From Myrmaecium sp. VS I D KN 1 (Eukaryota > Ascomycota > Dothideomycetes > Valsariales > Valsariaceae): 64,000 nt of DNA. Below the pieces are notes generated by a model. It searched no databases and was not told where the DNA came from. It saw only the letters and a list, made by a program, of their open reading frames with translations. Made by a program: the position numbers and the translations under genes. Shown piece after piece: positions 23,104 to 60,797 of the stretch. The stretch's first letter is position 1; every line of letters begins with the position of its first letter. The DNA lies in contig JADQAV010000002.1 of assembly GCA_019775845.1 (NCBI GenBank), positions 124,001 through 188,000 on the forward strand, read 5' to 3'.

Positions 23104-26100
23104 ATGGGTCCCGCTAACATGGCACGGTCAGAGCGTGACAAGAAGTTCAAACAGCTCTATGGTACGTCGCAACACTGCGTTTCTCTCACCAGCATCAACC
23201 TGCGTCTCCCTCGCCTGACCATGGACACGTTCCCCATATCCCACAGCATTCGCCAAATCGATCCCATCTCGTATCAAAGGCGTCTCCGAAGACGTCTACC
23301 ACGCCGACCCCCAACTCCTCCACGATCTACAAGAGCACATCTACGGACTCCGCGCGCTCTCCCCTTCCATGACCGCCGCCAAAGCCGACGAAACCGACGC
23401 GCTGAGCTCCGAGATATGGAACCTTGCTATCCGGTGGAACCGCCAGGAAGCCAATTCGGGTCCCCCAGCAGCAGATTTCGGACTCCGCAAGGCAGCAGAC
23501 GGGAACCGACGAACTATCTGTCTCCTTCGGGCGTTTGCGTTCTTCCTCATCGACCTCTCCTTCGCCCAGCAGCCCACCGTGCACCGGCAGCTGCGAAGCC
23601 GCACGCGGACGCGGTCTGGCGAGGCGAAGCAGAGCGATCCGTCGAAGCAGGGGAGGGGGGAGAAGCTGGTGCGGCTGCTGAAGGTCGGGTTGAAGGCGGC
23701 GAAGTTCTGCCTCGATACGGAGGAGCTGGATTTGTGTTCGAAGGTGGTCGAACGGGTGGCGGCGGCGGTCGAGGAAGCGGGCGATCCGATGCGGCAGGAG
23801 AGCGATGATGCGGATATTGAGGTCAAGGCGAGACTGAGGATGGAGTATTTTGTTATGAGGACTGCTTTGGTTGGTTCTTCCCCTCTCCCCTACCTGTTCA
23901 TGATGCGGTAAGAGAGATAAGCTTACCTCGTCGCGAACCAGGCCTGGAAGCAAGGTCGCATGGATATCGCCGAGCACATGTTCACCCAGAGTGCGGTCAC
24001 CGAGCGGCACCTGCTCACGCCGCAGGCTGCGGAGCAGTTGGCGGATGTGCTGTTTGAGATGGGGAGGGAGTTCCTCAAGAACAAGAAGTATAGCACTGCG
24101 GTGCGTTGGCTGGAGAGGTCTTACAGTATCCTTGGGGATCAGCAGCCGGATCAGATCAGTGCGGATTCTGGGGAGCTGAAGTTGAGCATTCAGCAAAGCT
24201 TAGGTGAGGGCTTGCTTGGAAGTGCGGTCGCTGAAGGAGGCCAGCTAGCTAATGTGGTCCGCAGTGCGAGCGCTTCTTGCGATTGGTGATGAACCGTCAT
24301 ATCGGCGTGCTGCTGATTTGGTGGAGTTGATGGAAACTGTGAGTACTATACCCTGCAGTGAAATCCCTGTGCTCATCATAGAAACAGGATTACGTGGATA
24401 AACTGGTTGTTTCTTTATTGAGACTCGAAGTCCTCAGCAAAGCACCGGCTCTGGACAATGATCTATACTATTCCGGTATACATGAAGCGCCTCTGTCCTA
24501 CTTCCATCAAGTACCGCCTTCCATGAGTGTACTAACCTCACATAGTGATCCTGAAGATTATGCGTTCTGCTGTTATGAGCCAGAAAGTCTTTCGCACGTA
24601 TGGTATCTCGCTGCCGTATCGCCCGGATACTAACGGGTCTCTATAGCATTATATACCATGTCCGGCAATTGAAACAGTATGTTACCGTCACTGAAGGTGT
24701 GCAGACTGACCCAATCCGCAGCGAAATCCTTGCCTGTAAGGCGCTGGACGACTTCATCGAGCTACGGCTGCTGTCCGCCGACTCGGAAGAGTATCTCGAG
24801 AAAGCCTTTACGGCAAGGATATTCATCACCACGAAGATGCATGAGCACCCCAATCTCGAGCAGCTCCAGGAAGTCATGGACTTGATTTGGAGAAATACAA
24901 AGAAGGCTTTGGGTACAGCATCTGCCCATGCTTCACAAACCGTACGTCCGCTTCTGCTGTTCTTCTATAGCTTACATTAACCCATCCAGCTCATGTGGAA
25001 ACGGGTCGAGCTAGCCTACAGTCAGGCTCAGCTTCAGACGACCGAGGCATGGTGTCGGCTCTGCCTGCATGACATCTTCGAGAAATGCGGCGAGGTGAAC
25101 AAGGCGAAGATATCCAGGTCGATCCCCGCGATAAAGGCCCCGTTCGTCCGTCGCATTCTAACGGATCGAGATAGAAAACTGATGCTCTGCGCCCTATCCC
25201 GTCAAGACTACGTCGCTATCCGGAAAGCCTTCTACGAGATGTCGGAGTCCAGTCGAGCAGCGCCTCTGTCGCAGTACTTGATGTACCGCGCAGCGATACG
25301 CAGCGGGGATGCGGAGTCCGCCTCCGAATGTCTCGAAGCCATCTTTCAGCGTTCGTCGGAGGATGCTACGATTCTGTATGCCTGCGTCCTGGAGGCGCAA
25401 CAGGCGGGACAGAGAGAACAGGGCGCGCTGGCGTTTCAGAAGCTTATTGAGCGGTTCGACAGTGGGAGGCCGGAGGGCATACATTTGCCTGCTTTACTCC
25501 GGTATGGCATCTGGAAGTTCGGCTTCTGCTGGCCATCCTACCTGACGATAGATCTTGTATAGGTGCACGACACGCATTCTCATAACGTCCCTGAAGAAGG
25601 AGAGTCAATCTTTGAAGGACGTTGAGGAAACCCTGTGTAAGAGTTTTGAATACGGTACATCTACCCCTGGATCTGGAATACAGCTATTTCTACTAACTGA
25701 ACAAGCTGCCGAGCAAGCGAAGAAACAGAGACGTCCGGTTACAGACGGTCAGGCTTGCTTCGCCATAGGGGACTTGCAATGGTTTTCTAAGAATGCTTAC
25801 AACATCTGCGTTCAATACTGCGATGCACTGCAGCCAGCGCAACTTTCCCGGCTTCTCGCTATTTGCTTGGCTGTAGGTAGCGCGTCCAGTGACTTCGGAT
25901 AAAACTCACGTTTCGCAGTTCATTGAGCTTCTCCGTGAAGACCATAATCTTCCAAAGCAAGAAGAGGAAGATCTCGTCCTTCGGCACATCTTTTGCGAAT
26001 TTCTCGCAGCTTCGACATCCGTGACCCTAGCCCGAGCAGAGGATAGCGTGCAAGTGTCGGTACGTAAAAGAGAACACCATATGCTTTGGTACCGATACTG

Positions 26101-27235: not shown

Positions 27236-28210
27236 TCAAAGCCTGACCTTCTTCGCCGGGGGTATATTGGAAGCGGGTAATGACCGCTTCTTGGCCATCT
27301 CCTCCTTCATGATGCGCTCTGCTTCCGACATCTTCTTCGGCGGTTCCTTGACAGCCATCTTCTTTACGCCGAGAGGATTCTTAAATGCCGAGAAGGCATT
27401 CTTCGGTTTTGGCTTCGCCGCAAACGACATCGAGACGGATTTCCCTCCCGGCTTTGCCGTCTCGGGAGCGGAGGCGTCGGTCCCCTCGCTCTGTTGTTCC
27501 GGAGAAGCAGACTTGTCCTCCGCGGCTTTCTCCCCCGCCCCATTCGCAGCCTTCGCATTCGTCTTCACCGCGAAGTTCAGCTTGACCTTCTCCCCTTCCA
27601 CGCGCTGCAACTCTCTCTTCCGCTCCTCCTCTTCCCACTCCTCCGCGGTCTTAGACGCCAGTTCCGCCTTGGCCCGTGCCACTTGCTCCTTGATCAACCG
27701 CTGCTCCCTCTCCTCATCGCCTTTATCCTGCCTCTCCCGTTTCCGCAACGCGTCCTGCCTCCGCAGCGCTTCGGGGCTGTTATCGATCCAGCTAATGAAG
27801 AGCCCCTTCTCCTCCTCACTCACACGGCAGATCCCCTCACGGCCGAGGTACTTCGCCAGCTCCGTCAAGCTGGGCCACTTGGTCGCGTTCATATGGATGT
27901 GCTCCTTATTACTGATGTACTCCTGGTAGAACTGGTTGACGTGGACCTTCTTCTCGCCGTGGGCGGTGCGGAGGAGCTGGACGAAGTCCCGGAGGAACTC
28001 GCGGCTGTACTGCTCGATGTACTTTTTCGGGTCCTCGCCGACGATGGCCATCTGCCGCACGTGCGACTCCGACTGCGTGTGGCACTTGAACCCGTTCTCG
28101 TCCCGGCATTGCTTCTCGCACACTTGGCAGTACCATCGTAGGCGTTGGAGGCCTTTGGATTTGAGCTTGTTGGAGAGGTGTTTGGTGCTGCCGACCTCGG
28201 CGCGCGGCAT
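27236..28210 (-). CDS. Kin17/Rts2-like zinc-finger nuclear protein
   Basis: A 324-residue single-exon protein. Kin17 is a nuclear DNA/RNA-binding protein linked to replication, DNA damage response and the spliceosome. The start MPRAEVGSTKHLSNKLKSKG and the C2H2-type finger WYCQVCEKQCRDENGFKCH...ESH are diagnostic. The winged-helix Kin17 domain runs to about residue 150 (FVQLLRTAHGEKKVHVNQFY, HMNATKWPSLTELAKYLGREG, ISWIDNSPEALRRQ). The rest is a charged coiled coil with Ala/Lys/Glu-rich linkers, a conserved ERIMKEEM helix and a basic tail. The C-terminal SH3-like/KOW tandem of animal Kin17 is absent, as in many ascomycetes. It is convergent with Spo22 (209-bp gap). Confidence 0.92.
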   Translation of the reverse strand: MPRAEVGSTKHLSNKLKSKGLQRLRWYCQVCEKQCRDENGFKCHTQSESHVRQMAIVGEDPKKYIEQYSREFLRDFVQLLRTAHGEKKVHVNQFYQEYISNKEHIHMNATKWPSLTELAKYLGREGICRVSEEEKGLFISWIDNSPEALRRQDALRKRERQDKGDEEREQRLIKEQVARAKAELASKTAEEWEEEERKRELQRVEGEKVKLNFAVKTNAKAANGAGEKAAEDKSASPEQQSEGTDASAPETAKPGGKSVSMSFAAKPKPKNAFSAFKNPLGVKKMAVKEPPKKMSEAERIMKEEMAKKRSLPASNIPPAKKVRL

Positions 28211-28683
28211 GGTTGGGGAGGGAGGGGGTTGGTGAGAAGGTAGGGGTTGTGGCGACGGCGCAGAGAGCGATGGGGGATGTGTGCGCTTGAGTGCTCGTGA
28301 ATCGGTAAGGTCGTATCCTGGTTTATGCGGGTTTCTAGGCGCTGGATCAAACGAGCGAGGACGGGTCTAATGAATGTCGTGGCTGAAGGCTGCTTGCTGA
28401 TTCTTTTGGATGCTGTTCGAGGACGTGCGGACAACCCGATCGCAAAGGGCGGAGGACATCCTGAGTGCTTATGTAATGACGCCACATTATAGTGGCTGAA
28501 GAAACGCGGGGTGAGGCTGACGGGCTGCACCATAATCATCTCGGAACATATTCGCGCTCCCGGGTCCAAGCTCCCATCTTGCATCATCGTCCAGGTACAA
28601 GCGGCCCGTCAACCGACCTCTAACACCTCGATTCCTTCCGCCTTGCTTTCTATTCAGCTTTTTACTCGTCCGGAACTGTCACA
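28211..28683. promoter_or_regulatory. divergent promoter region between KIN17 and frataxin genes
   Basis: This 473-bp spacer lies between divergent starts and so should contain both promoters. A pyrimidine-rich stretch precedes the frataxin ATG. No factor site is named. Confidence 0.5.
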
Positions 28684-32923: not shown

Positions 32924-33557
32924 CGAGGCAGTCCTGTAGCTCCAGTGGAGGTTTACTCTACTCACTGTCCGCGCACCCGCTGTAGCCTACTGTGCTTGGA
33001 ATCGCTTCGAGGTACCTCAACGGATATTCAAGCACACCAATGGAAGTAGCACTGAGCCTTCGGCGTTCCTAATGATATAATGACGGTACCTACCTACCTT
33101 GAAGAGCACGTCCAGTTCGTACACACTAGGTACGGTACTGTAGGTATACTCCCATGTGATTCATGCCATGGCACCATAAGTACACTTAAAGGCGTTGAAA
33201 TTTTTAGCAACAACTGGAACAAGCCTACATAGTAACTAAATCCATGTCGTTTTCATGCCGCCCAACATGATAGTTACAAGCTGCCTTCCTTCCAAACTTT
33301 CGTATGCCAGGCTCAAGCTGCCAGCCATGTCATCTGCATGTAGTATAGGTTACACCGAGTTTCGAACCTTTCAAACCTAGTAAGGCATACTATGATCCGA
33401 ACCCTCTGGTACACCGCTTTCCCTTCATTCTTCTTTCTGCGGACAGAATACTTTCTTTACATCTTCCTGAATGTTTTGCTACTCGGCCGGCGCCGTCCAA
33501 CCATTCCCGAAACGCGCGCCCCACCGCAACCCTCGCGTAACCAGTGCCACCTGCCCA
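32924..33557. other. 634-bp intergenic region with GTACCTACCTA-type motifs
   Basis: Rich in short GTACCTACC/TAGGTA words (near 33085 and 33125), common in ascomycete intergenic DNA. The upstream in-frame ATG at 33471 falls here if the next gene starts at 33558. No tRNA was found. Confidence 0.45.
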
Positions 33558-35948
33558 ATGTCAACGAACAACAGCAGACGTCGATGGCCGCCGCCTCCAA
33601 CTGTTGAAGATGAGCCCGTATCATTGGCAAGAGAACACAAAGTTGCTGTGCCTTCAGAAATCGTTAGAGATGAACCTCACTCAAACGCACTCATCGATCA
33701 AGATCTCACCACCTTGGTGGGCAGTATCAAGCCACCCTTGAATGGAGGACGCGACGATGAACCGTCGATTTTGCATGACACAAGCCAATCAGCATGCACG
33801 CCTGTAGAGGCTGCAAACGGTGGATTCAGTGCCGAAGGCCCTCATCCGGAACCTACGTTGAATCAGCCGTTCGTATATCTTTCAAGAGAACGGAGCCCTT
33901 ACGCATACCTCAAGCCTTCAACTACAAGCGATGCGGGTAATGGCCGTGAAGACAGGGTATACAAGTCCGCAACCAACTCCGGCATTCCTCTTCCCCTAGA
34001 GCAGACATTATGCAGTAATTATCCCGAACGTATGGATGAAGATAGGCGCAACGCCTTGGACCACATGGAAAGCTCAAGTTCCTACCGCAGGCCCGGATCG
34101 TACTTGCTAACTGAAGCCGATTTGTCGTCGCCAAACGAGATGCCTGCGGATTCACTTACTACGAGTTCTTCCAGACACTCTTCTCGTGCTAGGCAGGCCA
34201 GGTTGGGCATTATCAACCTTCCAGGAACGGGAAAAGATGCGTCTGCGGAGCAAAGCAACCGAGGGTCAAGCGCGTATGTCTTGTTTCCACCCCTTGATAC
34301 AGCTTTGCTGAGCAGATCAATGCTAATATTCTTGGCCCCTAGGGACAGCATTGAGCCGGGGCAAAGTTATCATCTGCCGCCACACAGCCGTACCTCGCTG
34401 TCTGGGTCAAAATCTTGTTTGAGGCCTGCATCACCCGGTCGATGTTTTCCAAAGGCTGGTTATCATGCACGGTTCGAGAAATCGCTATCTTCACATCCTG
34501 GCATGGACAACAACCAGAGCCAGCGAGTAGGCGTCTTCTCATTGCCATTGGGGGACTACGACGAACGTACATCTCCACTGCGGCCTCTCACTGAGACAGA
34601 CACAGGCCGGTTTTCTGTTGAAGCTGACCCTGCCTCGTCGAGAAAGCCGGCCACATCTTTACCTTACCCGGTAAGGGGCATTCGTGTTCAAGCTGTTATG
34701 CCGTCGGAAAGTGACTACGCCTTCCGACCCCATAGTGTTATGCCAAAGCCGTCTATAAAATTAACACCAGTAACGCTCAAGGCGCCTCATACCCAGCGTA
34801 CCCCGGCATGCTTCAGGCCACCGTCGCCTCTAGAAGATTCGCACACAATGTCGACACATTTCCGATCAGTACCTGAGAAAACTAATGCGGACCCAGACAA
34901 GATACGGAACCCCCTACCTCCCTGTCCAAGGCGAGAGTTCAGCACCCTTTATAATGACTGGTTCGCGCTTGATGGTTGTCCCGGGTTTGACATCTGCCCG
35001 ACGTGTTTGGACGCGAATTTTGCCGATACGTCATACCACTCGTTATTCAAAACTTCCACTCGCGGTTTGCAAGGAGCTGTCCGGTGCGATTTTGGTTCAG
35101 CATGGTTCCGACTGGCCTGGCTACTTTCTCGACACTCAGGCACCAGCCCACTCGACCTCTTTCGGAAACTAACGATCATCGAAGCGACCGAGCAGTCTTG
35201 TCTCGGAACACATAGTACAGCTGGTGTCTGGTACGGCCTTCTAGACACCACGGGCTATGTTCTTCCCGGCTTCATGGTATGTTCGGGCGACGTCCGGCGA
35301 CTTGAAGTCTTGTTTCCGACCTTGACCTTCTGCTTCTGTCGCTTACCGGTCAGTCATCTGCAAAGTGGGTACACATGTGCGCTTCGGATATCCTCATGGC
35401 GCTTTCCTTTATACTTAGATCTGCTTGTCGATATCGTGAACGCTGCAAGGTCAAGACATCAGCCACCAGATGTTCGTCCGTTCATCGACTTGGTTAGGAC
35501 TGCTGATTGCCAGGAGTGCCCACGCGATAATTTGATGGTCAACCAGAAATGGCACATCATCAGAGGAATTCCCGACCTCACAATCTGTGAAGAATGCTAC
35601 CGAGAAGTGGTAGTGCCGCCTGCGAGGTACGGTAACAAAGTGGCAATGTCGGTAGGACAAGTCGCTGTGCCCGTACCCGAGGAGCGAGGGCATGGTGTGG
35701 TTGGAAACAGTTGTTGCCTCTATAGCTCTAGAATGAGACGGATTTGGGATCGAGCTCTAAAGGAAGGTAACCTGGAGTATCTGGCCCGTAAAGCACGTGA
35801 TAGGAAGGCTGCAGAGACTGAGCTGCAGAGAAAACATAAAGAGCTCAGGAAAATGATGGAAGATCCGTCAGGCCCCTGCTCAGGCACCGCGGAGAGGGTT
35901 AATGGAGAGATTGAGAGAGTATTGGCTGAATGGCGAAAGTGGGAGTGA
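33558..35948 (+). CDS. Cys-rich fungal-family protein of unknown function
   Basis: 796 residues from ATG 33558 (825 from the in-frame ATG at 33471; the first 29 residues look like leader sequence). The N-terminal ~440 residues are Ser/Pro-rich and disordered. The conserved half starts near residue 450 with LPPCPRREFSTLYNDWF, then GCPGFDICPTCLDANF, then VRCDFGSAWFRLAWLL. Later come CTCALRISSWRFPLYLDLLVDI-like sequence, FIDLVRTADCQECPRD, WHIIRGIPDLTICEECY and SRMRRIWDRALKEGNLEYLARKA. The tail is coiled coil. Cys pairs (CPTC, CQEC, CEEC) suggest metal binding, but no named domain fits. I recall similar unnamed proteins across Pezizomycotina. It lies upstream of the GHKL-like gene on the same strand. 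Confidence 0.7.
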   Translation: MSTNNSRRRWPPPPTVEDEPVSLAREHKVAVPSEIVRDEPHSNALIDQDLTTLVGSIKPPLNGGRDDEPSILHDTSQSACTPVEAANGGFSAEGPHPEPTLNQPFVYLSRERSPYAYLKPSTTSDAGNGREDRVYKSATNSGIPLPLEQTLCSNYPERMDEDRRNALDHMESSSSYRRPGSYLLTEADLSSPNEMPADSLTTSSSRHSSRARQARLGIINLPGTGKDASAEQSNRGSSAYVLFPPLDTALLSRSMLIFLAPRDSIEPGQSYHLPPHSRTSLSGSKSCLRPASPGRCFPKAGYHARFEKSLSSHPGMDNNQSQRVGVFSLPLGDYDERTSPLRPLTETDTGRFSVEADPASSRKPATSLPYPVRGIRVQAVMPSESDYAFRPHSVMPKPSIKLTPVTLKAPHTQRTPACFRPPSPLEDSHTMSTHFRSVPEKTNADPDKIRNPLPPCPRREFSTLYNDWFALDGCPGFDICPTCLDANFADTSYHSLFKTSTRGLQGAVRCDFGSAWFRLAWLLSRHSGTSPLDLFRKLTIIEATEQSCLGTHSTAGVWYGLLDTTGYVLPGFMVCSGDVRRLEVLFPTLTFCFCRLPVSHLQSGYTCALRISSWRFPLYLDLLVDIVNAARSRHQPPDVRPFIDLVRTADCQECPRDNLMVNQKWHIIRGIPDLTICEECYREVVVPPARYGNKVAMSVGQVAVPVPEERGHGVVGNSCCLYSSRMRRIWDRALKEGNLEYLARKARDRKAAETELQRKHKELRKMMEDPSGPCSGTAERVNGEIERVLAEWRKWE

Positions 35949-36366
35949 GCCAGGGCCATGGTAAGCATTTGGCTAAGTTTTTCTATTCTCTTTCTGTCTT
36001 TGTCAAGAGCCGTGCGAGTTTCCTATGGTATCAAACTACTTTTTCCACCGAGGAGCAATGTTCCTGCGCGAGTTCCTGGCCTTTTCTGCTTGCTCAATCA
36101 CCCCGTGGTATATCGGCAATTCTAGTCTTTGAGAAAGTGCTCGCCTATTAGTTGTGGCCCTTCTAATTTCATTAAGTCTGTGTGTGCCTTGTATTGCGAG
36201 CTCTGGCAAATGTGAGCATGGTTTGTTTGCCAAGAAACCGCCAGTTTCCTTTCTTACTCTCCTGAGAGGCGCGTTGCAGTCGTGACCATTTATACCTTGA
36301 CCTCCGTATCCTTCACCATCTGTTACCGCTTCCTGACATCCTTCACATTACTTCACTGATCTGACA
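35949..36366. other. 418-bp spacer before the GHKL-like gene
   Basis: 3' region of the Cys-rich gene and promoter of the next, same strand. No feature is recognised. Confidence 0.45.
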
Positions 36367-39300
36367 ATGGACGGAGTAGCGGGTCAACACGACGGTCTCG
36401 GCTACTTGGAGCCGAATGGCCCACGAAGCTTACTTACGAACGACCTAATAGGCCTTCATGAGAAGCTAATACACTTGAACGTGGATACAAATTATGTTAA
36501 GTCATGGGGAACTCGAGAAGCATTCCGTGAACTTTATCAAAATTGGTTAGTACTCCATTACTTCTAGGATGAACAGAACCAACTGCGAACTCCTAGGCGC
36601 GACGCCATGTTAGTCACAAATCAGATCAAGCTCACAGAGTTCACGACCATGCTCAACGAGAGCAGACATGAAATCATCATTCAAGCGGTCTCTCTGTCTA
36701 CTGGTTCAATCATGGGTTATATTAAGTTCGTTTGGGACGACGAGGACTTTGGGGTTCTGCAAATGACCAACTTTGGCTCCCGACTGCAACGTCACCACCT
36801 TGCTATTGGTGACTCCAGCAAACGCGCTGACCCAATGCAGGCGGGTCAGCACGGGGAGGGGTTGAAGCTTGCTATCTCAGTACTCCTTCGGAACCCTCAT
36901 AACTTCAGTGTTCGATGCGCCTCTGACAGCCATTATTGGGACTTCTTACTCGACTATGACTACAACGTGGTTTGCAGACTGCAAATGCAGCCTCAGGCCT
37001 ACATAAAGGAGAGCATGAGCAAAGCAGCCCATCGCGAGGCTCACGGTGTACCCAGGGGATGCGAATCCCATGATTGGGAAGACGTCACCTTTGAGATTGG
37101 AATACCTAGAAAGGTCAAAACTGCATTTGGCTCCGCTGCTCAGACATCGAAAATCCCTCTAAAAGACTTTAGGGAGTGGCTAACAGTAACAACCGATATT
37201 TGCAAGCCTAACTCTTTCATTAGCACCCAATACGGCTTTCTAATTCTTGATGAGCATTTCAAGGGCAAATTCTACTTGCGAGGGCTGCTGCTACCAGGCG
37301 GTAGCCTCTCACGGAAAGAAGCAGAGTATAGCTACAACTTCTTAAAAGGCGGTACCTCTCGCAACCGCCAACGTCTAGAAGATGATGATAATGCTCTGGA
37401 TACCGAAGCGAAATTGATGCTCAGCATCTGGAGAGAAGCCATTCAGTCGGACAAGAAGATGCAAATCAAGTTCTGCGATATGCTTCTCCAGAACTCTTCC
37501 TCCGCTGAGTTGCATTGGTTGAGAGAATGCGGCATCTCTGATGTTGTCCAGTCTCTGTCGGGGCTATGGAGCCAGCTTCGATCTAATAAAGACCATGAAA
37601 AAAAGTCTTTCTTCTTTGAATCTGGACGTAAGGATGTAAGTGTCAGCTCCAGGGCCTTCCCGACTCATGCTGACATGGTATTCAGGAAATGAGAGCTATC
37701 CAAGAGGTACTGGGTCGTACTGCAGTGTCCTTACCAGCGTGGCTTTGGGATGTGTTTCGCAAAGAAGGCCTATGCTGGACTGTTAATGAAGAACTAGGCC
37801 GTCGGTTCTATGCCTGCGATATTATCGAGCCTCTAAAAACTTCATTCAGCATGCACATAGTAAATTCGCTCAAATCATGTCTCCTCGAACATGAAGTCAC
37901 GAAAGATGCTCGGCTGACGTTCTGCGATGGTTCCCTGGAAATGCCAACAGCTCTTTGGGACAATGAACTCAAAGAATTCCGTGTGAACGGCCGTTTTCTA
38001 TGTTACAAAGACTCTCATGCTATTCTCCCGTGCGGAAGCACTGTGCATGACTCCGCAAACGAGACCGGTGGAGAAGACAAAGATGTGACTTGCGACCACG
38101 TCACACAGTACATCTGGGGAGAGATGATACGAGCCTTACCCTTACCCGCTGATCACAAGGGCAGGAAGCTGCAGGCCAGTCTGGTCAATATTGCGATGAC
38201 CAAGTTGGATTTACTTCCGCGATCTCTTAATCTCATACCAACACTCCTGAAAGGGGAACTGATGCTACAATGGGATCTTCCAATTTCGCAGCGTATAAGC
38301 ATCACGAGCATGAACACCATAATAGAGATACATATGAAAGGCAAATGCGCACGAGTGCATTTCTCTACTGATTGCTGTAAGATCCCCTGATAAGTTCAGA
38401 TAGAAGAACTCGCATTAACAGCACTGTTGCAGGCTCGTGTGGAATAACCCCCGCAGAGGTTCCATTTCGTCAAACGCAGCACACGTTCAAGAATTTGGAG
38501 ATTTCCGATTGGTTTGCACAGGTATACTTACAAGATAGTCCAAGTTTCAGAAGCCTCGAGTCCAACACGGCTAGGCCGTCAACCGAGAATAAGACACTTT
38601 TCCAAACTGTGGAGACTCAGACGGGTATCGTGAGGTCTGCCGATGACCCAATGGCCAAGCTGTTCAAACAGATCGGTTATGGTCCACTCGAGCCTTCGGA
38701 TCCATTCGAGATCAGCATCTCGTTGAAGAATACGAAGACACAGGAGGAAAGCACTTACCCCCTTGGAGGTGGGAATATCCCCCACGAAGCGTTTGTAGTC
38801 CCTGCTAACTCCTGGAAGTTCACGCGGTCTCCGTAAAGGTTCAAGATTTAGGTTGGGACCGTGGATTTCCTGGAAATCATGAGTGGTATACACTGCCACC
38901 GTCGTCAGGCACGGGACAGACCATGCTGCTGGCCTACAGAACGGGAGCTACCTTAACTGTGGGGCCAAAAGGAGTACTCAAGAAGAGGGGCGGTGTGACC
39001 TTTCAGCTTCCCGCACAACGTACTACCAAGAGACCATCTCAAGGACAGAGGGTTCAGCCTGATGAACTTGAAGGCGAAGATCCTTGGGATTCTTCAGATA
39101 TATTAGACGAGCAGCAGTCGTTGTCTGCACTAGGCGGCGCACCAGGACCAGCGGGTGATCCCGCCAAATCGGCCAAAGATGTCCCGATATCAAAGCGTAT
39201 GAAGTCAGCCACTGGTACGGAAAAGACTACCTCCGGAGACAATACGCCAGCCTCATCTGAAGCTGTTGAAACAGCCACGCCGACTCCAGCTCCTAAAAAG

Positions 39301-39399
39301 AGGAAACTGGGGAAAGACTATCACCCCAAACCTCAGCCCAGAAAAACCTCGCCTGCCACAGAACATGCTTTAAAAACATGCTTCCCGAGTAGGAAGTGA
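36367..39399 (+). CDS. GHKL-fold ATPase-like nuclear protein of unnamed fungal family (one apparent frame break)
   Basis: Exons 36367-36545, 36597-37635, 37686-38376 and 38433 onward. Residues 50-63 (REAFRELYQNWRDA) give the GHKL N-box E-L-x-x-N-x-x-D-A. Residues 117-120 (TNFG) stand where DxGxG is expected. LAIGDSSKRAD leads into GQHGEGLKLA at residues 143-152, matching the glycine motif of Hsp90/MORC-type ATPases. The Mg-binding Asn and the ATP-lid glycines are kept; the adenine-contact Asp is not. The frame closes at 38836, but the next frame reads on at once (HAVSVKVQDLGWDRGFPGNH) into a basic tail with KKRKLGKD and KPQPRK. No intron fits that 20-bp interval, so a one-base indel near 38810-38822 is likely. 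The function is unknown; a chromatin role is a guess. Confidence 0.75.
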
Positions 39400-41374: not shown

Positions 41375-44300
41375 ATGGTGAAGATCAAGAAAACGGCCAC
41401 ATCCAGGCATGAGGCGACCGTAGTAAGTGACCTCAGCGAAGGGTTTTCTTTTCTCGCACATCGTAAATGCTAACACAGCATAGTCTAGGTTCATATCAGA
41501 TTTCGCTGAGGCGACTAGCTCGATACCCCTCTATCAACTTCCCAAGCATCTGGAATCGTTTCCGACACAGTGGCCATTCCCGAGAGGTGATCTGTATCAC
41601 TGGATCCCGGTTCTGAACCGCTTCGATCGTATACTGGAGCTTTTCAATGCCGAATATGGTTTGGACAAGGGACCCCAAGTCAGACCGTTCGAGAGGAGAC
41701 TTTTGAGAAGCGGCGATGCGGAAGAGGGCGCTAAAGACCCTGCGCAAGAGACAACGAATGATGTTCTGGATACGCTGGGGATACCACCTGACGGTGATCG
41801 TCTCCTCATCCAAAATATACTGGAATTCAGCCGAGTGCTTTTGGAGAATTGCGGTAACCGGAGCTTGTACGCCAGTAGTGGACATCTGAACAATCTTCTG
41901 AATACAACGTCTCTCCCGCTCCTCAAGTTCACTCTGCGCCTCGGGCTTCGCTTATCTCAACGGTACCATGCATCCCGGCAGCGGTCTACATCCAGCCATT
42001 ACAACATCAACCTGGACAAGGTCCATAAGCTTGCCATGCCGTTTGCAAAAGGGTCAATCGCATTTTCCTCAACCTTTGCTACGCCGGCCACCAAGGGCAA
42101 GGAGAAATCATCGACAGATACGGGCGGTCGAAGGAGGCGGCAAGTGATTAATCCCGCTGAGCTTGTCTCAGTTGCTCGGGCCGAAGAGGGCACGCCCTTG
42201 GTGGGTGAGGAATGGGGCAGCGTGCTCGTTACTTACTACGACACGGCAAGCGCTCGAGGCGAACAGCCCCAGACAAACACTTCAGAAAGCCCTATGTCCC
42301 CAGAGTCGCCTATGTCACCTACTCCAGTCCGTAGGACGTCAAATCTCGGTCCTAATCAGACGCCGAGGCCGCATCGGACGCTGACTTCGGATGATTCTCC
42401 TACAGCAGCAAGCGCTTCCAGCACAAGGACCCGTGAAGGGCCGCATCATTCCGGACCTAGAACTCTGGAAATACCGCGTGATAAAGTTGTTGGCGCGTCT
42501 GCGTATGACCTGATCAGCAGCAGCCTGGCGCAGCTTCCGGAGAGCTCTCACTATGAGTTCCTCCAACGGTTTCGCGTGGCTACAGCTTTGAACGGTAGCA
42601 AAGAAGATCGCCAAGATATGGTCGCTATACGGTTACTTGCTATTGCAAATCTTGCCTACGCGCACACTGAGTCGACATTCCAGATCAAGGTTTCGCAGCA
42701 GGATTCGGACGAGCCGCGCCGTTTACAACTCCCTTATCAACTCTCCGAAATGGTCCAGCCCCCAGCGCCCGGTGCAGGTGAAGTGTCACGAGAGCTTGAG
42801 ACGGTCGCATTATGGACTCTTGAGGCGCTGTCAAAACACAAGTCAAAGTCAAATGACGTTTGCAGTGCCTTGAGCGTTAATGTCAACCACGGGGTGCTGT
42901 TTTACGTTGTACGCAAAGCGGTTGCCGAACTGGGCATTGAAGAATCTCCTTCTCCTCAAAGGACTACTGAAGATGAATGGCGTGATGCTTTGTTCTCCTT
43001 GCTAACGAGTCTCCCTCCTTCCCAGCCTCGGACAGGCGAAGCTATGGTGGCAGCTGGCTTGCTCGAGATCCTCGCCGAGGTTCTCAAGCTACGCACTACT
43101 AAGGCTGAAAGGAACCACCCGCGCATTCTCAACTTCCTAGACACATTTATATACAATCTTCGTGATGCCTTCCAGGCGTTTGTCAACGCAAAGGGTCTTG
43201 ATATCGTCGCAGATTTAACCGCATACGAAGTCTCATCTGCGATGGAGAAGGCGAATCAAGGAATGGGGATGCCAGACAACTTTAAGACTCAGCTCACGGA
43301 CTACCAAATACCTTTCTATCACCAACAAACCCTCAGGTGGCTCTTCAAATTCATGAACCACATGCTCTCTCACACCGGAACCAATTTCGATAGACTTCTC
43401 CGTAATCTCATCGATTCTCCGCAGCTTCTCAGCGGCTTGCGCGCCGTGATTGAGAATGCCAGCATATACGGATCCCAGGTGTGGAGCATGGCTGTCAATA
43501 TTCTCACGAATTTCATTCACAACGAACCCACCAGCTACCAAGTTATCGCAGAGGCCGGAGTAAGTAAAGCATTCTTGGAGTCCGTTACGCAGAAAGTCCT
43601 TCCGGCTCTCGACCAGGCTACCGAAGGTCAAAATGATGACTCTCCCACTGAGACTGCTGCGTCCCCTACAAACCCTGAAACTCAGTCTGAGGCTTCGGTG
43701 AATGTATCGGAAAACCTGGAGCCTCCTGCTGGCCCACTTGCTCCTGGTATCCTACCTGTAGCGGAAGCAATGTCTATCATTCCTCAAGCTTTCGGTGCAA
43801 TATGCCTGAACGGAAACGGAATGAAGTTGTTCAGGGCCTCCACGGCCCTGGAGAGCTTTTTTGAGATCTTCCTCAGTCCCAAGCATGTGAAGGCGTTGGA
43901 TGCCGATGTCGAGGTTTTGACGATCATTGGAAATTCATTCGATGAACTCGTTAGACATCATCCCCCTTTGAAGGAGAGCATCCTCCGCTCCGTCGCCACG
44001 ATGATCAGAAGAGTAGCCGACTTATGTTACCGCCGTTCTGTTGTCAAAGGTGCTGGCGCGAAGCTCTTGATTGAAGGGGAAGACGGCAGGCCCGCCGTTG
44101 CCGGTGGGCGAGCGGCCCTTCGCGGCTTACAGGGGCAGATGCACAAGGCGCTAAAGGAGGCACGAGCAGCAATCTCAGGGTCGCAGCAGGACGTCGAGAT
44201 GGAAGATGTGACTACGAACGCAGAAGCTCTACTCAGTGATGTTGTCGAGACCGAGGACCCGAAAGATGGCCCCACCAGCACTCAATACATCGGCACTGCA

Positions 44301-47300
44301 TGCCGCTTTCTCTCCGGCTTCTTCAGTCACTCCGCGCTGTGCGCGGCCTTCGTGGAAGAGCATGGCATAGAATCCATTCTAGACTTCGCTACTCTGCCAT
44401 GCTTGCCGTATGATTTCGGCGAGAACATGGCATCCAGCTCTGAACTCACCCAGGTCATCCAGCTGTTAGTCGAGCAGAAACCGCATCTCACCCTTCCATC
44501 CTTGGTTAGGCGTACCCAAGACGCTCTTGATAATCTAGAGCCCCTTCTCAACCATTCGAGCGGAGCGGCCTTCTTTGCACCCTTCACTAGCAAGTCAAGC
44601 CTCTCGTCAGAGACAAGCAGCATCCTCCCGGAGGGCACCACATTGGTTAAAGCACTTGTTTCGGTGCATACCTTGTGCAAGGCTCTATCAGACACCTTTC
44701 AGGGACAGATGTATGCCCACCGCAGTGCTCATAACCTGTTGACCCAGGTGAATCTCACTGATGCGTACCTGCGTCTTGTAGACTCCCTTGGTCGCCTGAA
44801 TCGTACTTGCCTTTGGGAAGAACTTCTTTTGCAGAAGAACATGTCGGCTGAGTGGGAAAAAGCGACACGCGTCAAAAGCGACGGCTTTGGTACTCATGAA
44901 GCTGACCATGTTCTCCACTTACAAAACGAAGAGAGCCCGGCGGAACAGGATGGAGCAGCTGTAGCAATTTCTGAGGGTAACACTGAAGTTCCAGGAGCGA
45001 CAGATGCAAGCCAGGCTCCTCCGTCTCCTCAGAATCGTCCTTCAGAGACCCACAGCACACCGGACACAAGCGAGGGTTCTCCTCTGGATGTTCGCAGTGT
45101 ATACTTCAAGAACACCCAGGTTCTGCGCTATCTGCTGAGTAAGCTTCCTATGGCAATCCATCCATTCCTGCAGGCACTTGGAAAGTCCGTCCTCTCTCGG
45201 CGTACCAGCGATTTGTATCAGAAGCAATGCGCCAACAGTATAGCCGAAAAATTGGCGAAGGCTGCCATCGACCAGCTAACGTTCGAACATCCTAAGACAT
45301 CTGAGTCTACCAAGGATCGTTTCGCCTATTGGATATGCGCGCTGTCAACTGTCTTCCAACTGCTGATGGATAATGGGGTGGATCGGGGCTTCGCTCAGGC
45401 CCTCACCATGGTTCTTCAGTCCTTCAAATCACAGGGCGGATTTACCATAATTGGGGAAATACTCAACGCGTTTGTGGATGAAGCAATGTCTCTCCCATCT
45501 TCCCGTGATAATGGCGATACGCTTCAACCAAATGAGGCCACCGAGGCCCGCGTGAGCATGGCGGGAATCAAGATTATCCTGGACTTCTTCGGTCAGGTCA
45601 CAAACTCTAAGTTTATCAATGACTCCACCCAAACTCAGGCTATGCATCACCGTGACAGGGATCGCGAGAGGCCTGACTTCTTCTCAACCCCGCAATTCCT
45701 AGTCGAGCTGCGGTTGGCTACTATCGAGCCTGTGCGGAAGATTTGGGACTCGGACGTTGTAGACAAACTCAATACTGGGACCGTCAAAGCGTTGCTGAGA
45801 TATCTCAAGCAGACGCTTGAGGGCGAGGGCGAAAACGGCGCGTTCAGGCTTGATGACCGGCCCCAAGTGCGGATCAAATCTGCGTGGAAGCCATGGAAGC
45901 CTAGGAATTCTGAAAACATCAATCGGCTGAAGGCAGCAGATTACGACGACGAACTCATCATGGAGGCCCTGTATCGTTGTTATGATAACGCAGCTTTAGC
46001 CCGCGAATACTGCGCAGCTCAGTCCCGTAATTCGCGCATGCCCAGGAACCCAATTCCTCTTGAGGAACGGCCCACGCAGTCCAACGATACAGTTACTGGC
46101 TCTGGCTCGCCACCGATCGGAAGTACATCTACTGGAGATGTACCAGCTGGGTCTTTACTCATGAATGAACCTGGTAATGGATTCGAGGGCACGGCCGTTG
46201 CACTTCAACTTCTTGCGAATGCGGCCGCAAGCGCAAATCCTCTTAGCCATCCATCTTCAGCAAACCCATCCACGGATCACATCAGTGAAGCTGTAGAGTA
46301 TGTGACCCTCGATGACCTGAATGATCAACGGGAGGAAATGCGCCTTGAGCTCGTCGATAAATGTCTGAATATTCTGCGTGTCCACGAGGAAGTCTCTTTC
46401 GAGTTGGCCGATCTCATTTTTGCCTCCATAGTACAGATGGATCATGTGCGTGACAGCGTTCATGCAGAGGTTACAGAAACCCTGGTTCGTACTCTGCTCT
46501 CCTTGCAAACGGATGACCTTCGGGAGAACGGCAAAAAGATTGCGTCTTATGCACACCTCCTTGCGCTTGTCATCCAGGATGATTCGCTTTTCAAGGCGAG
46601 TGTAGATGACCTACAGAGCAATTTCGGAACTTTGCTCGAATTCATCAAGATTCCCGATCGAAGCCAAGACGAAAGCGCGCCCTGGGTTGCAAATGTGCTT
46701 TTGATCATCGAAAAATTCCTCGCTGAAGATGCTCAACCGAAGCTAATCAGATGGTCTCCGCCTTCCGTCGAAACTGCCGCAGTCGATGAAGATATTGCTG
46801 AGCTTCCCAAGCCGCTAATATCGGATGAGGACAAGTCGCGGCTGTTCGATGCCTTACTGGAGATCCTCCCGCGCATAGGGAAAGATGATGCACTTGCTCT
46901 GTCTGTAGTACGTGTGCTAGTTATTCTAACCCGCAACCGCGAGATCGCTCGTCGACTGGGTGAGAGGCGTAATCTGTCTCGACTTTTCGTTGCTGTCAAG
47001 CAGATTGCCGGCGTGTCGAGCCAGCGTCTCCAAAACTCGTTCATGCTTATTTTGCGCCATTTGATTGAAGATGACGATACCATCAGGCAGATTATGAAAA
47101 CCGAGATCTTGGAGAAATTCGAGAACATCGAACGCCGATCTATCGACACCACCGCGTACACACGTCAAATGTGTCATCTCGCCATTCGCTCGCCAACAAT
47201 CTTTGTTGAGGTGACGAATGCTACATTGACTCTTCCCCGCTTTGACTCCAATCAGCGGCCACAGGTTCTAGCGCTCAAGAAGGAGCAGAAGGCAGAGGAA

Positions 47301-50300
47301 AGCAGCGCGACCAAGGAGCCTTCGCAAGAATCAGTCAAGCCCTCCACGGAAGCGAGTGTTGTTGCCGAGGATCAGAAGCCTAAGGAAGTCAGGCACCCTA
47401 CTGTCGAGCATCCTGACGGAGTGATCCATTTCTTGCTCTCTGAGCTACTGACATACAAAGATGTCGAGGACAAACCTGTGCCGACAGCTGTTGAAAAGGA
47501 GAAAGAGCCTACGCCTGCGGTGGACGCTGATATGGCCAATGGCGATGAAAGCACTCCAGCACCCTCAACAGAATCTGGAAATCCCTCCGAGGTACGAAAG
47601 CCGGAAAAGGTCGAGTTCAAGTCAGAACAGCATCCGATATTTGTCTATCGTTGCTTCCTGCTCCAGTGTCTCGCTGAACTTCTCCAATCCTATAATCGAA
47701 CCAAGATCGAATTCATCAACTTCTCGCGGAAGGCGGACCCGCGCGCCATGACACCATCAAAGCCTCGTTCCGGTGTTCTTAACTATCTGTTGAATGCTCT
47801 CGTTCCGATCGGCACGCTTGCACACTCCGATGACCTTGCTTATAAGAAGAAGGCTCAAATCTCGAACTGGGCGATGTCGGTGGTTGTTGCTCTTTGTGCA
47901 AAGACTGGAGAGCACCATATTCCGAAGAATCGGGAAGCCCGTGAACAGGAGGAAGACTCTGACCTTCTTTATATCCGACGTTTCGTCCTCGAGCATGGGC
48001 TGAAGGCTTACAAAGATGCTATGTCATCGGCTGATCCGCTTGATCTCAAATATTCTCGTCTTCTTAACCTGGCAGAGTTGTTCCAGAGGATCCTTGCAGG
48101 CAAAGCATCTTCGAGCAATAATCAAGCCGCCATGACCAGTCTGATGCTATCACAGGAACAGATCGCGAAGATCATGTATGAGAAGAACTTCATTTCAACT
48201 TTGACGAGCTCAATTGCGGATATTGACCTCAACTTCCCCAATGCCAAGCGCGCCGTTAAGTATATCCTGCGTCCTCTTCGAACTCTGACCCAATCTGCGT
48301 TGAAGCTCTCAGCACAGTCTGAAATTCCCGTCCCGCCCGGTCAAACCGAGGACGACCAAATCTCTACGGCAAGCTCTGGTTCCGATATTGAAGAAGATCG
48401 TGAGGAGACTCCGGACCTGTTCCGCAATTCGACTTTAGCAATGTTTGAGCCGCCTCGTGAGGACGAGTCTGACGATGAGGACGACGATGAGGAAGACGAG
48501 GACGGCATATATGGGGATGAATATGGCGACGATATGGATTATGATGAAGAAGACATGGAGCTCGATGAGCACGCTGACGAAGACGTTGTGAGCGATGTCG
48601 AAGAAGACATGGGCCCAATTGAAGGTCTGCCTGGCGATGTCGGAATGGACGTTGAAGTCATTGTCGATGAAGATCAGCACGGCTTGACCGACGACCCGGA
48701 CGACTCGGACGACATGGATGAGGATGAAGACGACGAAGACGATGAGGATGATGAAGGCGATGACGAAGATATCGAGGACATCATGGATGAAATGGAAGCT
48801 GATGAAGAAGGGGGGAGCCTTATGGGGGCTGAGGATGAAGAGTGGGCTAGCGAGGGAAATGAGGATGAAGAATATATCATTGAGGAGGATCATGATCATG
48901 ACGATGGCCGCCCAGAGGGAGCGTTCGACAATCTAGTGCGAGTACTCGAAGGCCAAGGACCTCGAGAATTGCTCGGCCATCTTGAGGATGCTGATGCCCA
49001 TCTGGATCCCGACCAAGATGAATATGTGGATGAGGACGATATGCCGGACGATGGTAAGCAGCTAAGAACGGAAATTGCTTGACCCTGTGCTAATGCTCTC
49101 TCTTAGAAGAAGATGATGAAGAAGACTACGCTGATGAGGAGCTTCACTATGATCTTTTCCAACCCGGTCTCGAGGATGATGACGAAGGCATGGGTGGGGG
49201 TTGGGGCTGGGAGATCGACCGACCAACAATTATCGGCACACACCGTGGCCACCACCACCATCACCACCGCGGAATGAGCTCTTGGATGTTTCCTACTGGC
49301 GGTGATCGCATTCTTGGTAAGTCAATTTCTATTTTCCTTTCCCAACCTCTTTAACCACTGACCACCCTCAAAAAGCGGCCTCTTATCGCTCACATCGTCC
49401 AGCAGGTGGCAACCGCACACAAGATGATGGCATCAACCCGCTTCTGCAACATCCCGGTCGCTCGGCTAGCTCTGCTGCACCTGGTCGCGCCCGTGGAGCC
49501 ATGGGTGGTGAGCTGGCGGGGCCAATGGACACAATGCAGCCTGGCCGCCTGTTCGGCGGCAACGGTCCCGTCTCCTTCATCAGCAATATTCTGAATGTAA
49601 TGGGCCATTCTCCAGCGCTTCATCAGGGCGGAGCATTGCATTTCTCGTTTGGCCCGGGTGTACCTGGAGGCGCAGTACATATGGCCGATCTCCGGCAGTT
49701 CCGCCGTAGTGACGCGCTCGCATCTCGTCCCTCGAACGACCTGGCCGCGATTGGCTCGTTTGTAGTACAGAATACTCCTTTCCGGTGGCAAGAAGAGGCT
49801 CGACTCCTTTATGGCGCGCATGCTCTTGAGAAGGCCCAGCGAGTCATTAACTCTCTCTTCAAGATCATGGTGCCCCCCGCAATCGAGGCTGCCAAGGCTC
49901 GGGCCAAGAAGGAGCAAGAGGAAGAAATCGCACGCCGTAAGGAAGAAGAAGAGCGCAAAGAACGCGAACGAAAGGAGCGAGAGGAGCGCGAAGCCAATGA
50001 AAAGAAAGAGCATGAAGAGCGTGAAGCTAGGGAGGCTGAAGAGGCTGCTGCTCGTGATCGTGAACAGGCTGAATCCCAGCAAGGTCTTGCGACAGCTAAC
50101 GCCCCCGAAGTTACTACTGGAGACCAACCGATGGAAGGTGTTCAGCCTACCCAGCAGTCCAGTGCGACCAGCGCCGGAACAGCCGAATCGACTCAGCGTA
50201 TCACAACTGTTATACGTGGCCGCGAATTCGATCTGACCGGCTTGGGTGTGGACCTGGATTACCTTCAGGAAATTCCAGAAGAATTCCGCGAGGAAGTCCT

Positions 50301-53300
50301 GATGCAACAGGTGCAACAACAACGCTCCCAAGCCGCACAGGCGGCTCAGTCCGGAGACGAACCTACCGACATCAGTCGTGAATTCCTAGACGCTCTACCC
50401 CCTGATCTACGAGAAGAGCTTCTTGCACAGGAAGCTACTGAGCGCCGCCGTCGCGAACGTAGCGAACAACGGCGCCGTGCTGCTACAGAAAACAATGATG
50501 CTACCGCCAGAGCCGAAGATATGGATCCAGCAAGCTTTCTCGCATCCCTTGATCCTGCCCTTCGTCAAGCCGTCCTCATGGAACAGGATGATGATATGCT
50601 TGCGCAACTTCCCCCGGAAATTGCAGTCGAGGCAAGAGCACTTGCAGGCGATCGTCGTTTGAACCAGCTGAATGATTATCTTCCTCGTGTTGGTCGAGCT
50701 GCGCGCCCTGGCACGCAAGATCAGCTCGATGAACAAGCGAGCAAAAAGCCGAAGCAGAACAGGGCCGCTGTTCAAATGCTGGATAAAGCAGGCGTGGCAA
50801 CTCTTTTACGTTTGATGTTCGTCCCACAACAAGGCAGCGCCCGAACAAGCCTGCTGGGTGTCCTGAAAGACATCTGTGAAAATCGTCAGAATCGCGCAGA
50901 GGTCATATCCATTCTGCTCTCAATACTCCAGGATGGCAGTGCGGATGTCAACGCCATCGAACGAAGCTTTGCTCAGCTATCTCTTCGCGCGAAGCAACCA
51001 GCACCACAAAAGCCTCCCCAAACGCCTAAGAGGACTCTGACTGGACAATTTCCCAACAGTTTAGACATGTCACCTCTCATGGTTGTGCAGCAATGTCTTT
51101 CCACGCTTTTATACCTCACTTCTTCAAATCCGCATATGGCATCTTTCTTCCTCTCCGAGCATGAAACCTCGGTTGGCTTCAAATCCCGCGCTACACGCAA
51201 GGGCAAAGGCAAGGAGACGAAAGCTAGCCGATTCCCTCTGAATGCCCTTATGAGTCTGCTCAACCGCAAGCTCATTATTGAGAGCTCATCCGTCATGGAG
51301 CTTCTTGCTGCCTTACTCGAGAAGATCACCAGCCCGCTGAATGCATTGTTAAGAAAAGACAGGGAAAAGGCGGTTGAAGAGGAGTCCAGCGACGCAGCTC
51401 CGGCGCCCGCTAGACCGGACAATAGCACAGAAACGGAGCCTGCCGATGTTGATGCACCAGCCGCCCCTGAAGTTGCTGCCGAGCAATCTTCTGCTGCCGC
51501 TGCGGATGAGAACACGGACGACGCTAAGCAAGAATCGGCCGCGAACGCAAAGCCTACTAAGTCTCGCAACCTGGTCCCTCCAGAAGTGCCTGATTACAAT
51601 TTACGACTTGTGGTCCACATCCTTGCAGCTCGCGAATGTAGCAGCAAGACGTTCAGAGATACTTTGACCGTAATCAACAACTTGTCGGCAATTCCAGGCG
51701 CCAAAGAAATATTCGGTAAAGAACTTGTCAAGGAAGCAGAAGCACTTGGGCAGCTTATACTGCAAGATCTCCAAGACCTGAACGAACAGATCTCCAAGGC
51801 CAAGTCAGGCACCGACGTACAGGGAATGGCTCTCTCCAAGTTTTCGCCTGCCAGTTCCGATCAAACAAAACTCCTGCGTGTTCTTACCGCTCTCGACTAT
51901 CTATTTGACCCCAAGCGTTCTGAATCCGCGGATAAGCCCTCTAGCACAGCTCTAGAAGGTCTGGCACCGGCGCAGAAAGAAGACATTCTTACGACGCTCT
52001 ATGAGAATTCCACCTTTGGTCTTCTCTGGATCAGGCTCAGCGACTGCCTGACAGCCATCCGTCAAAGGGGTAACATGTTTAATGTCGCAACCATTCTTCT
52101 GCCGCTTATCGAGGTTCTGATGGTTGTTTGCAAAAACACGACCCTCAAGGATGTACCGTTGTCGAAGGCTACGCAAAAGGAATTTGCATTGTCTAGTCCG
52201 CCACCCGAGTCCCGTATGGAGAACCTCTTCTTTAGGTTTACGGAAGACCACCGCAAAGTACTCAATGAATTGGTCCGCCACAACCCTAAGTTAATGAGCG
52301 GCTCCTTTTCCCTACTTGTCAAGAATTCCAAGGTACTGGAGTTTGACAACAAGCGGAATTACTTCAGTAGGAGGCTACATAGCCGTGGATCTGAAACGCG
52401 ACACGCCCATCCGCCGCTGCAGCTTTCTGTTCGCCGGGACCAAGTCTTCCTTGATTCATTCAAGTCGCTTTACTTCAAGAGCGGCGACGAGATGAAATAT
52501 GGCAAGCTCTCTATCCGCTTCCATGGCGAGGAGGGCGTCGATGCGGGTGGTGTCACTCGTGAATGGTTCCAAGTGCTTTCTCGTCAAATGTTCAATCCCG
52601 ACTATGCATTGTTTGTGCCTGTTGCCTCTGATCGCACGACCTTCCACCCCAACAAGCTCAGCGCTGTCAATCAAGAGCACCTTTTGTTCTTCAAGTTTAT
52701 CGGACGTATCATAGGAAAGGCCCTCTACGAAGGCCGTGTCCTGGACTGCCACTTCAGCAGGGCTGTCTACAAGCGCATACTTGGCAAGCCTGTCAGCATC
52801 AAGGACATGGAGACTCTCGATCTGGATTACTACAAATCTCTCCTCTGGATGCTCGAGAACGATATCACTGACATCATCACCGAGACCTTTTCTGTGGAAA
52901 ATGAGGCCTTTGGTGAGATACAGATAGTGGATCTGATCGAAAATGGACGCAACATCCCTGTGACGGAGGAGAATAAACATGAGTACGTCCGCCTGGTTGT
53001 CGAGTACAAGCTCACGGGATCCGTGCACGAGCAACTTGAACATTTCCTCAAGGGATTCCATGAAATTGTTCCTGCGGAACTTGTCTCCATCTTCAACGAG
53101 CAAGAACTCGAGCTCCTCATTTCTGGTCTCCCTGATATCGATGTTGATGACTGGAAGAACAATACCGAGTATCACAATTACACCGCAGCTTCCCCGCAGA
53201 TCCAATGGTTCTGGCGAGCAGTGCGATCCTTTGACAAGGAGGAGCGAGCCAAGCTTTTGCAGTTCGTGACGGGAACCAGCAAAGTCCCTCTGAATGGATT

Positions 53301-60670: not shown

Positions 60671-60694
60671 TACTGCTACTGCTACTGCTACTGC
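60671..60694. repeat. (TACTGC)4 microsatellite
   Basis: Four perfect 6-bp units in the long spacer. Confidence 0.9.
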
Positions 60695-60797
60695 GATTGG
60701 TCTACTGGTGTGTTGATATGTACTGCTGCTTGCTACTCGCTACGGCTCGTGAGCGAATGCGTTGAGGTTATATGCGGTTGGTCGAGCGACGAGTTCA

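What the first reader, a model, noticed from the sequence alone, without database searches (positions are those of the whole stretch)
36367..38400. GHKL-type ATPase-like fungal protein outside the named families
The N-box ELYQNWRDA at residues 55-63, the LAIGDSSKRAD segment and GQHGEGLK at 143-150 are in the order and near the spacing seen in Hsp90/MORC/MutL-type ATPases. The motif II position (residues 117-120, TNFG) lacks the adenine-contact Asp, which implies unusual nucleotide binding. The ~600 residues downstream match no domain I know, and the end is a basic NLS-like tail. A nuclear GHKL machine of unknown role is the best candidate for an undescribed system here.
Basis: partly seen in the sequence, partly recalled or inferred. 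Interest (0 to 1): 0.75.

Follow-up and report, generated by a model that had tools for sequence, protein, structure and literature searches.

The report
Phage-like GHKL protein in a fungus
A fungal gene makes a protein whose first third is an Hsp90-like ATP-binding domain of a kind found in these searches mostly in bacterial viruses, joined to a long tail with no recognisable relatives and a possible nuclear address.

Summary
The GHKL motifs are real, in order and not chance. The gene is longer than reported: five exons, 36367-39399, about 941 aa; intron 1 falls inside the N-box and a PKKRKL NLS-like motif lies near the true C-terminus. Pfam, NCBIfam and PDB sequence searches find nothing for the domain, but it matches a large unnamed phage family, PHROG 6077 (E 2.4e-17). 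A profile built from 99 phage or prokaryotic relatives scores it 124 bits; the best of 201 controls scores 1.4. A phage member folds at pLDDT 94 and its listed solved matches are all Hsp90-class; the poorer fungal model matches MORC2, weakly. The missing motif II Asp is not peculiar to this protein: Asn fills that place in 61 of 99 relatives, Asp in 10. The same change (D79N) blocks ATP binding in Hsp90, yet the catalytic Glu, the N-box Asn and a conserved arginine pair are kept. So this is a GHKL protein outside named Pfam families, belonging to an uncharacterised phage family, with a ~560-aa extension without relatives. Best mechanism: a nucleotide-switched nuclear clamp (inferred). Nucleotide use, direction of transfer and occurrence in other eukaryotes could not be tested.

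The parts
36367..36545 (+). exon 1, residues 1 to 60 (last codon split): start of the GHKL domain, N-box E55 and N59
   Evidence: PHROG 6077 positions 2-30 match here on their own, E 0.0013
36546..36596 (+). intron 1 (51 nt, GTTAGT...CTAG), splits the N-box; in frame with one TAG; no CTRAY-like branch motif found
36597..37635 (+). exon 2, to residue 406: D62, motif II (N118), G-box GQHGEGLK 143-150, G289, Y306, R317 and R319
   Evidence: PHROG 6077 positions 44-106 match, E 2.7e-9; profile match over residues 32-367
37636..37685 (+). intron 2 (50 nt, GTAAGT...CAG, CTGAC branch-like motif)
37686..38376 (+). exon 3, residues 407-636: no relatives found
38377..38432 (+). intron 3 (56 nt, GTAAGA...CAG); removes the stop at 38388-38390
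38433..38768 (+). exon 4, about residues 637-748
38769..38818 (+). intron 4, preferred model (50 nt, GTGGGA...AAG, CTAAC branch-like motif); other boundaries possible
38819..39399 (+). exon 5, to residue 941: tail rich in P, T, G, K, S with PKKRKL NLS-like motif from residue 907

Best explanation
The gene encodes a nuclear, nucleotide-switched clamp. Residues ~32-367 are an Hsp90-like GHKL module of the phage family PHROG 6077: a Bergerat ATPase domain followed by a short middle-like segment with a conserved arginine pair. Residues ~370-941 are a part without known relatives that carries target binding or dimerisation and an NLS-like motif. Most likely cycle, by analogy with Hsp90 and MORC: nucleotide held by N-box and G-box closes two N-domains, the R317/R319 pair reads the gamma-phosphate, and hydrolysis through E55 reopens the clamp around a nuclear target. 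Shown by computation: family membership, motif retention, predicted fold. Inferred: nucleotide use, dimerisation, nuclear location, target. The Asp-to-Asn change at the base-contact residue suggests altered base recognition, shared with most of the relatives found.
For: PHROG 6077 E 2.4e-17; tblastn to 20 phage records at E up to 0.1, best 2e-6; 99-member profile 124.3 bits against 1.4 for the best of 201 controls; hhalign probability 99.5, E 1e-22 over residues 32-346. Kept in relatives: E55 in 96 of 99, N59 in 95, D62 in 98, K135 in 99, R317 in 97, R319 in 98 of 99. Phage model pLDDT 94.1, the 50 PDB matches shown are all Hsp90-class, best E 7.3e-11; RIIA proteins appear among viral models from rank 10. 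Fungal model pLDDT 71.1, pTM 0.72, top two PDB matches MORC2, E 3.1e-4 and 6.7e-4. The family profile aligns to this genome's own Hsp90 at N-box, motif II and G-box, probability 88.7. PKKRKL tail motif.
Against: N118 is the equivalent of Hsp90 D79N, described as nucleotide-binding defective (PMC10148809, passages). The fungal arginine motif is R-Q-R where 97 of 99 relatives have Asp in the middle, and the last Gly of DxGxG is Arg. Fungal fold matches have TM-scores of only about 0.3 and rmsd about 12, and non-GHKL proteins appear from rank 9. That model carries 17 intron-encoded residues in the N-box helix, and in its alignment an intron-encoded Asp took the place of D62. A sequence profile of the family against PDB ranks an unrelated FakA domain first (E 0.02), ahead of Hsp83 (0.039) and MORC2 (0.38). 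No evidence for a dimer, a target or expression; an NLS-like string is weak evidence.
Confidence: 0.4

Rival explanations
1. A captured phage-type GHKL fold kept as a scaffold: a pseudo-ATPase that neither binds nor turns over nucleotide and acts through protein contacts.
For: N118 in place of the base-contact Asp, R122 in place of the last Gly of DxGxG, Q318 in place of the Asp of RDR; D79N is nucleotide-binding defective in Hsp90.
Against: E55, N59, D62, K135, G143, G146, E147, G148 and K150 are all kept; the Asn state is shared by 61 of 99 relatives, a set in which 96 of 99 keep the catalytic Glu, which is odd for a dead fold.
Confidence: 0.3
2. A diverged eukaryotic GHKL protein (MORC, Hsp90, MutL or sacsin type) descended vertically, its likeness to the phage proteins being no more than shared superfamily membership.
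For: The fungal model's best PDB match is MORC2; all share the Bergerat fold. Eukaryotic genomes other than this one were not searched.
Against: No Pfam family matches the protein at E up to 10, while the phage-family profile scores it 124 bits, with YVxxWG, SSKR, GxxYxxGL and RxR motifs outside the generic GHKL signature.
Confidence: 0.07
3. A gene in decay: the conserved letters are left from a functional past.
For: No intact second copy found; a short relic of another copy elsewhere in the genome (C64) lies between stops. No expression data.
Against: Four GT-AG introns leave one open frame of 941 codons; the catalytic motif set is intact although identity to the first six aligned relatives is only 22-29%.
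Confidence: 0.13

Closest known systems
PHROG 6077 (phage proteins of unknown function; in records called 'histidine kinase-like ATPase', 'sacsin-beta sandwich' or 'hypothetical protein')
   Same: N-terminal ~335 residues: YVxxWG, RExxQNxxD, (N/D)xG, LGxSSK, GQFGEGxKLA, GxxYVxGL, Y306, RxR
   Different: 94 of the 99 relatives are 329-498 aa (range 179-808, some cut by contig ends), and 29 of 99 have HExxH after residue 250. The fungal protein has no HExxH, longer loops (49 residues against a median of 16 between N-box and motif II), R-Q-R, and a ~560-aa C-terminal part without relatives
Hsp90 / HtpG / TRAP1
   Same: All 50 PDB matches shown for the phage model; N-box, motif II and G-box aligned by hhalign to this genome's own Hsp90
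   Different: Motif II Asp absent in the fungal protein and most relatives; alignment stops after the G-box; no Pfam match of the fungal protein
T4 RIIA and relatives
   Same: Phage GHKL proteins, frequent among viral structural matches from rank 10; T4 RIIA shows REL..N..D, SSK and IGGFGxGxK
   Different: T4 RIIA scores only 6.9 bits with the family profile and keeps DFGPG
MORC ATPases
   Same: Eukaryotic nuclear GHKL proteins (recalled, and PMC2292703 passages); top PDB match of the fungal model
   Different: No MORC-type Pfam match anywhere in the protein; reported as absent from fungi (PMC2292703, passages)

Membership tests
GHKL superfamily | N-box ExxxNxxD | tested here: met
   E55, N59, D62; kept in 96, 95 and 98 of 99 relatives
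GHKL superfamily | Motif II DxGxG with base-contact Asp | tested here: not met
   N118-F-G-S-R; in 99 relatives N 61, S 18, D 10, T 9, gap 1
GHKL superfamily | G-box GxxGxG | tested here: met
   GQHGEGLK 143-150; 94 of the 99 relatives were found through a pattern on this motif, so its conservation there is by construction
GHKL superfamily | Bergerat alpha/beta fold | tested here: met
   Phage member pLDDT 94.1, Hsp90-class matches; fungal model weaker, TM about 0.3, with an intron-encoded insert
PHROG 6077 | Significant profile match | tested here: met
   E 2.4e-17; in the own genome only this gene matches
PHROG 6077 | RDR motif after the GL motif | tested here: inconclusive
   R317 and R319 kept, middle Asp is Gln
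Hsp90 or MORC, as a member | Match to a family profile or solved member by sequence | tested here: not met
   Pfam 0 families at E up to 10 for residues 1-636 and at E up to 1 for 407-941; PDB 0 matches for residues 1-406. A Morc6_S5 search of the whole genome was empty, but its controls rang nowhere, so it proves nothing
T4 RIIA | Sequence match to the same family profile | tested here: not met
   6.9 bits for T4 RIIA with the 99-member profile
Hsp90 or MORC, as a mechanism | Nucleotide-dependent dimerisation | not testable with these tools
   needs purified protein

The most novel reading that the evidence does not exclude
Phages and this fungus share a GHKL lineage that has naturally fixed the 'binding-dead' Hsp90 D79N state while keeping the hydrolysis residues, because its nucleotide is not ATP: the Asn (or Ser/Thr) reads another base, such as guanine or a signalling or modified nucleotide. 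The fungus took this phage switch into the nucleus, in a kingdom reported to lack MORC, and fitted it with a new effector part.
Probability: 0.12. Interest if true: 0.88.

Novelty: new variant of a known kind. Interest (0 to 1): 0.6.

Why it matters
It links an uncharacterised but widespread phage protein family to a eukaryotic, possibly nuclear protein. It also shows that the Asp-to-Asn change used as the binding-dead mutant of Hsp90 is the natural state of most relatives found in a GHKL family that keeps its other catalytic residues, which makes base recognition by the Bergerat fold directly testable. And it gives fungi, from which MORC was reported lost, a candidate nuclear GHKL protein of another origin.

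Tried and rejected
Fungal domain (residues 1-406 or 1-636) against Pfam, NCBIfam, PDB and PADLOC: nothing. Plasmids: no match. Viral contigs with the fungal protein alone: no match. C-terminal part: no Pfam match for residues 407-941, no PDB match for its first 343 residues, no second copy in the genome (one 35%-identity match at E 0.13 on contig C66 taken as chance). These genome searches give lower bounds.

Phage gene neighbourhoods: of 165 neighbour frames found, I picked 113 by hand (dropping short, opposite-strand and near-identical ones). 45 Pfam families matched, 25 were shown; the commonest, DNA ligase, was in 3 of 113, so no conserved partner was seen.

T4 RIIA as the same family: rejected, 6.9 bits. 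Tree: the fungal protein sits beside one Vibrio phage protein with support 0.70 on a branch about 4.5 times the median, so its origin is unresolved. Fungus identity by 5.8S RNA: no match. Zincin domain: single members match DUF6782, SprT-like or YgjP-like weakly, but the C-terminal parts of three other HExxH members (L020, L025, L056) gave no zincin match.

Literature: no paper of the library names PHROG 6077. Seven other searches listed no title or abstract start that describes this family; these were capped listings, not full reading, and the library holds open-licence papers only. Passages were read in PMC7824862, PMC5336643, PMC2292703, PMC10148809 and PMC12280139. PMC5336643 reports 150-aa phage 'histidine kinase-like ATPases', whose relation to this family was not tested.

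Weaknesses of the counts: the 99 relatives include near-duplicates (L023/L037, L044/L060, L045/L079, L047/L048, L068/L102, L093-L096), and 94 were found through a G-box pattern. The genome scan used a pattern one residue longer than the viral scan, so the two hit numbers are not strictly comparable. PHROG 6077 also rang in 2 of 14 named control genomes (Thermus composti, Deinobacterium chartae), so the family is not confined to phage records.

Full report
The observation. A pattern for their order and spacing is found in 0 of 20000 shuffles. The N-box exists only after removal of a 51-nt intron at 36546-36596. Open frames and GT-AG borders extend the gene to 39399: exons 36367-36545, 36597-37635, 37686-38376, 38433-38768 and 38819-39399, 941 aa. 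The fourth intron has alternatives, the nine combinations listed giving 920-944 aa. Three of the four introns have a CTRAY-like branch motif 10-14 nt before the acceptor; intron 1 has none. The tail is rich in P, T, G, K and S and holds PKKRKL from residue 907.

The genome. The window lies in a 25.66-Mb, 66-contig assembly. It holds an Hsp90 of 704 aa, and beside the gene lies a Tom1/HUWE1-type HECT ligase (the name is recalled from the domain set). With ~50-nt introns this is most likely a filamentous ascomycete; that is inference, and the species is unknown. No intact second copy was found. A 22-residue stretch on contig C64 (82% identical, 54 of 66 bases, 6 synonymous and 4 non-synonymous codon differences) lies between stops and is probably a relic of another copy.

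Relatives. Pfam, NCBIfam and PDB sequences give nothing at E up to 10. tblastn finds 20 phage records at E up to 0.1, best 2e-6, and PHROG 6077, of unknown function, matches at 2.4e-17. Five phage proteins and the fungal domain were aligned and used for scans: of 149 pattern stretches in viral contigs 83 were relatives and 80 were kept; of 22 stretches in the 84,980-species genome collection 14 were relatives. In these scans the family is chiefly a phage one; whether the 14 are prophages or stray phage contigs was not tested, and PHROG 6077 also rang in 2 of 14 named control genomes. Eukaryotic genomes other than this one could not be searched. A profile built from the 99 non-fungal proteins scores the fungal protein at 124.3 bits over residues 32-367; 200 shuffles and the reversed sequence reach at most 1.4 bits. 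hhalign gives E 1e-22.

Conservation. Among the 99 relatives: Y43 95, W47 96, E55 96, N59 95, D62 98, K135 99, R158 97, R317 97, D318 97, R319 98. The fungal protein keeps all of these except D318, where it has Gln. The G-box is 99 of 99, but 94 of these sequences were found through a pattern on it. Motif II is the striking place: position 118 is N in 61, S in 18, D in 10, T in 9 and a gap in 1. Eight of the 10 Asp members also carry a C-terminal HExxH, against 29 of 99 overall. Single members match metallopeptidase families weakly, while three other HExxH members gave no such match, so 'zincin-like' rests mainly on the motif. By Pfam, HATPase_c_3 matches 11 and HATPase_c 8 of 63 members at E up to 0.01, which ties the family to GHKL by sequence.

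Fold. The phage member L016 is predicted at pLDDT 94.1 and pTM 0.85. The 50 PDB matches shown are all Hsp90-class (HtpG, Hsc82, TRAP1, GRP94, Hsp90), best E 7.3e-11; TM-scores are 0.22-0.38 by query length, so the match is to parts of those proteins. Among viral models the first nine are mostly unnamed, and RIIA proteins appear from rank 10. The fungal domain, folded with intron 1 read through, reaches pLDDT 71.1 and pTM 0.72. Its two matches at E up to 0.001 are both MORC2, followed by topo VI and topo II at E 0.004-0.03; TM-scores are about 0.3 or less and non-GHKL proteins appear from rank 9. A sequence profile of the family against PDB is inconclusive: FakA 0.02, Hsp83 0.039, MORC2 0.38. 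hhalign of the family against this genome's own Hsp90 (probability 88.7, E 2.6e-6) pairs N-box, motif II and G-box, with Asn opposite the Hsp90 Asp.

Meaning of N118. In Hsp90 the equivalent D79N is described as nucleotide-binding defective and E33A as hydrolysis defective (PMC10148809, passages). R380 of the middle domain contacts the gamma-phosphate (PMC12280139, passages). I suggest by eye, not by a tool, that the family's LxLxRDRxxV stands for the Hsp90 PLNLSRExL segment; hhalign did not extend that far. A family that keeps Glu, Asn, Asp and the arginines while replacing the base-contact Asp is, I think, more easily explained by altered base recognition than by loss of nucleotide use, but this is not shown.

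Known background. [quoted passage not shown] The arrangement here, a GHKL module with differing C-terminal parts, is similar in outline. MORC is reported in most major eukaryotic crown groups except fungi (PMC2292703, of 2008, passages).

Verdict. What checking adds is that it is a eukaryotic member of an uncharacterised phage family with a natural Asp-to-Asn site, and that the gene is longer, with two more exons. Whether it is an active nuclear clamp, and which nucleotide it uses, needs protein.

Noticed in passing
33471-35948 (+): An 825-aa open frame just upstream of the GHKL gene without any Pfam match at E up to 1.
   Followed up: no
41484-49082 and 49321-53493 (+): Two long open frames of a Tom1/HUWE1-type HECT ubiquitin ligase (DUF908, DUF913, UBM, HECT): ordinary.
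   Followed up: yes
24001-56000: G+C is 47.7-56.5% per 2-kb bin here, against mostly 56-64% outside (exceptions 55.3% at 22001-24000 and 52.1% at 60001-62000); the GHKL gene lies in the lowest bin (47.7% at 36001-38000).
   Followed up: no
G000 contig C64:111144-111221 (-), in L004: Isolated 22-aa stretch 82% identical to the GHKL protein, between stops: probable relic of another copy.
   Followed up: partly
L009, L016, L019, L020, L025 and others: 29 of 99 family members carry HExxH after residue 250, a possible GHKL-metallopeptidase fusion of unknown role.
   Followed up: partly
L016:2989-4323: Weak match to PADLOC TmtA models around the N-box and G-box (best E 2.8e-4), perhaps generic GHKL similarity.
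   Followed up: no
27236-28366 (-), 17132-18313 (-), 357-2363 (-): KIN17, a HAD hydrolase and a sugar transporter: ordinary genes.
   Followed up: no
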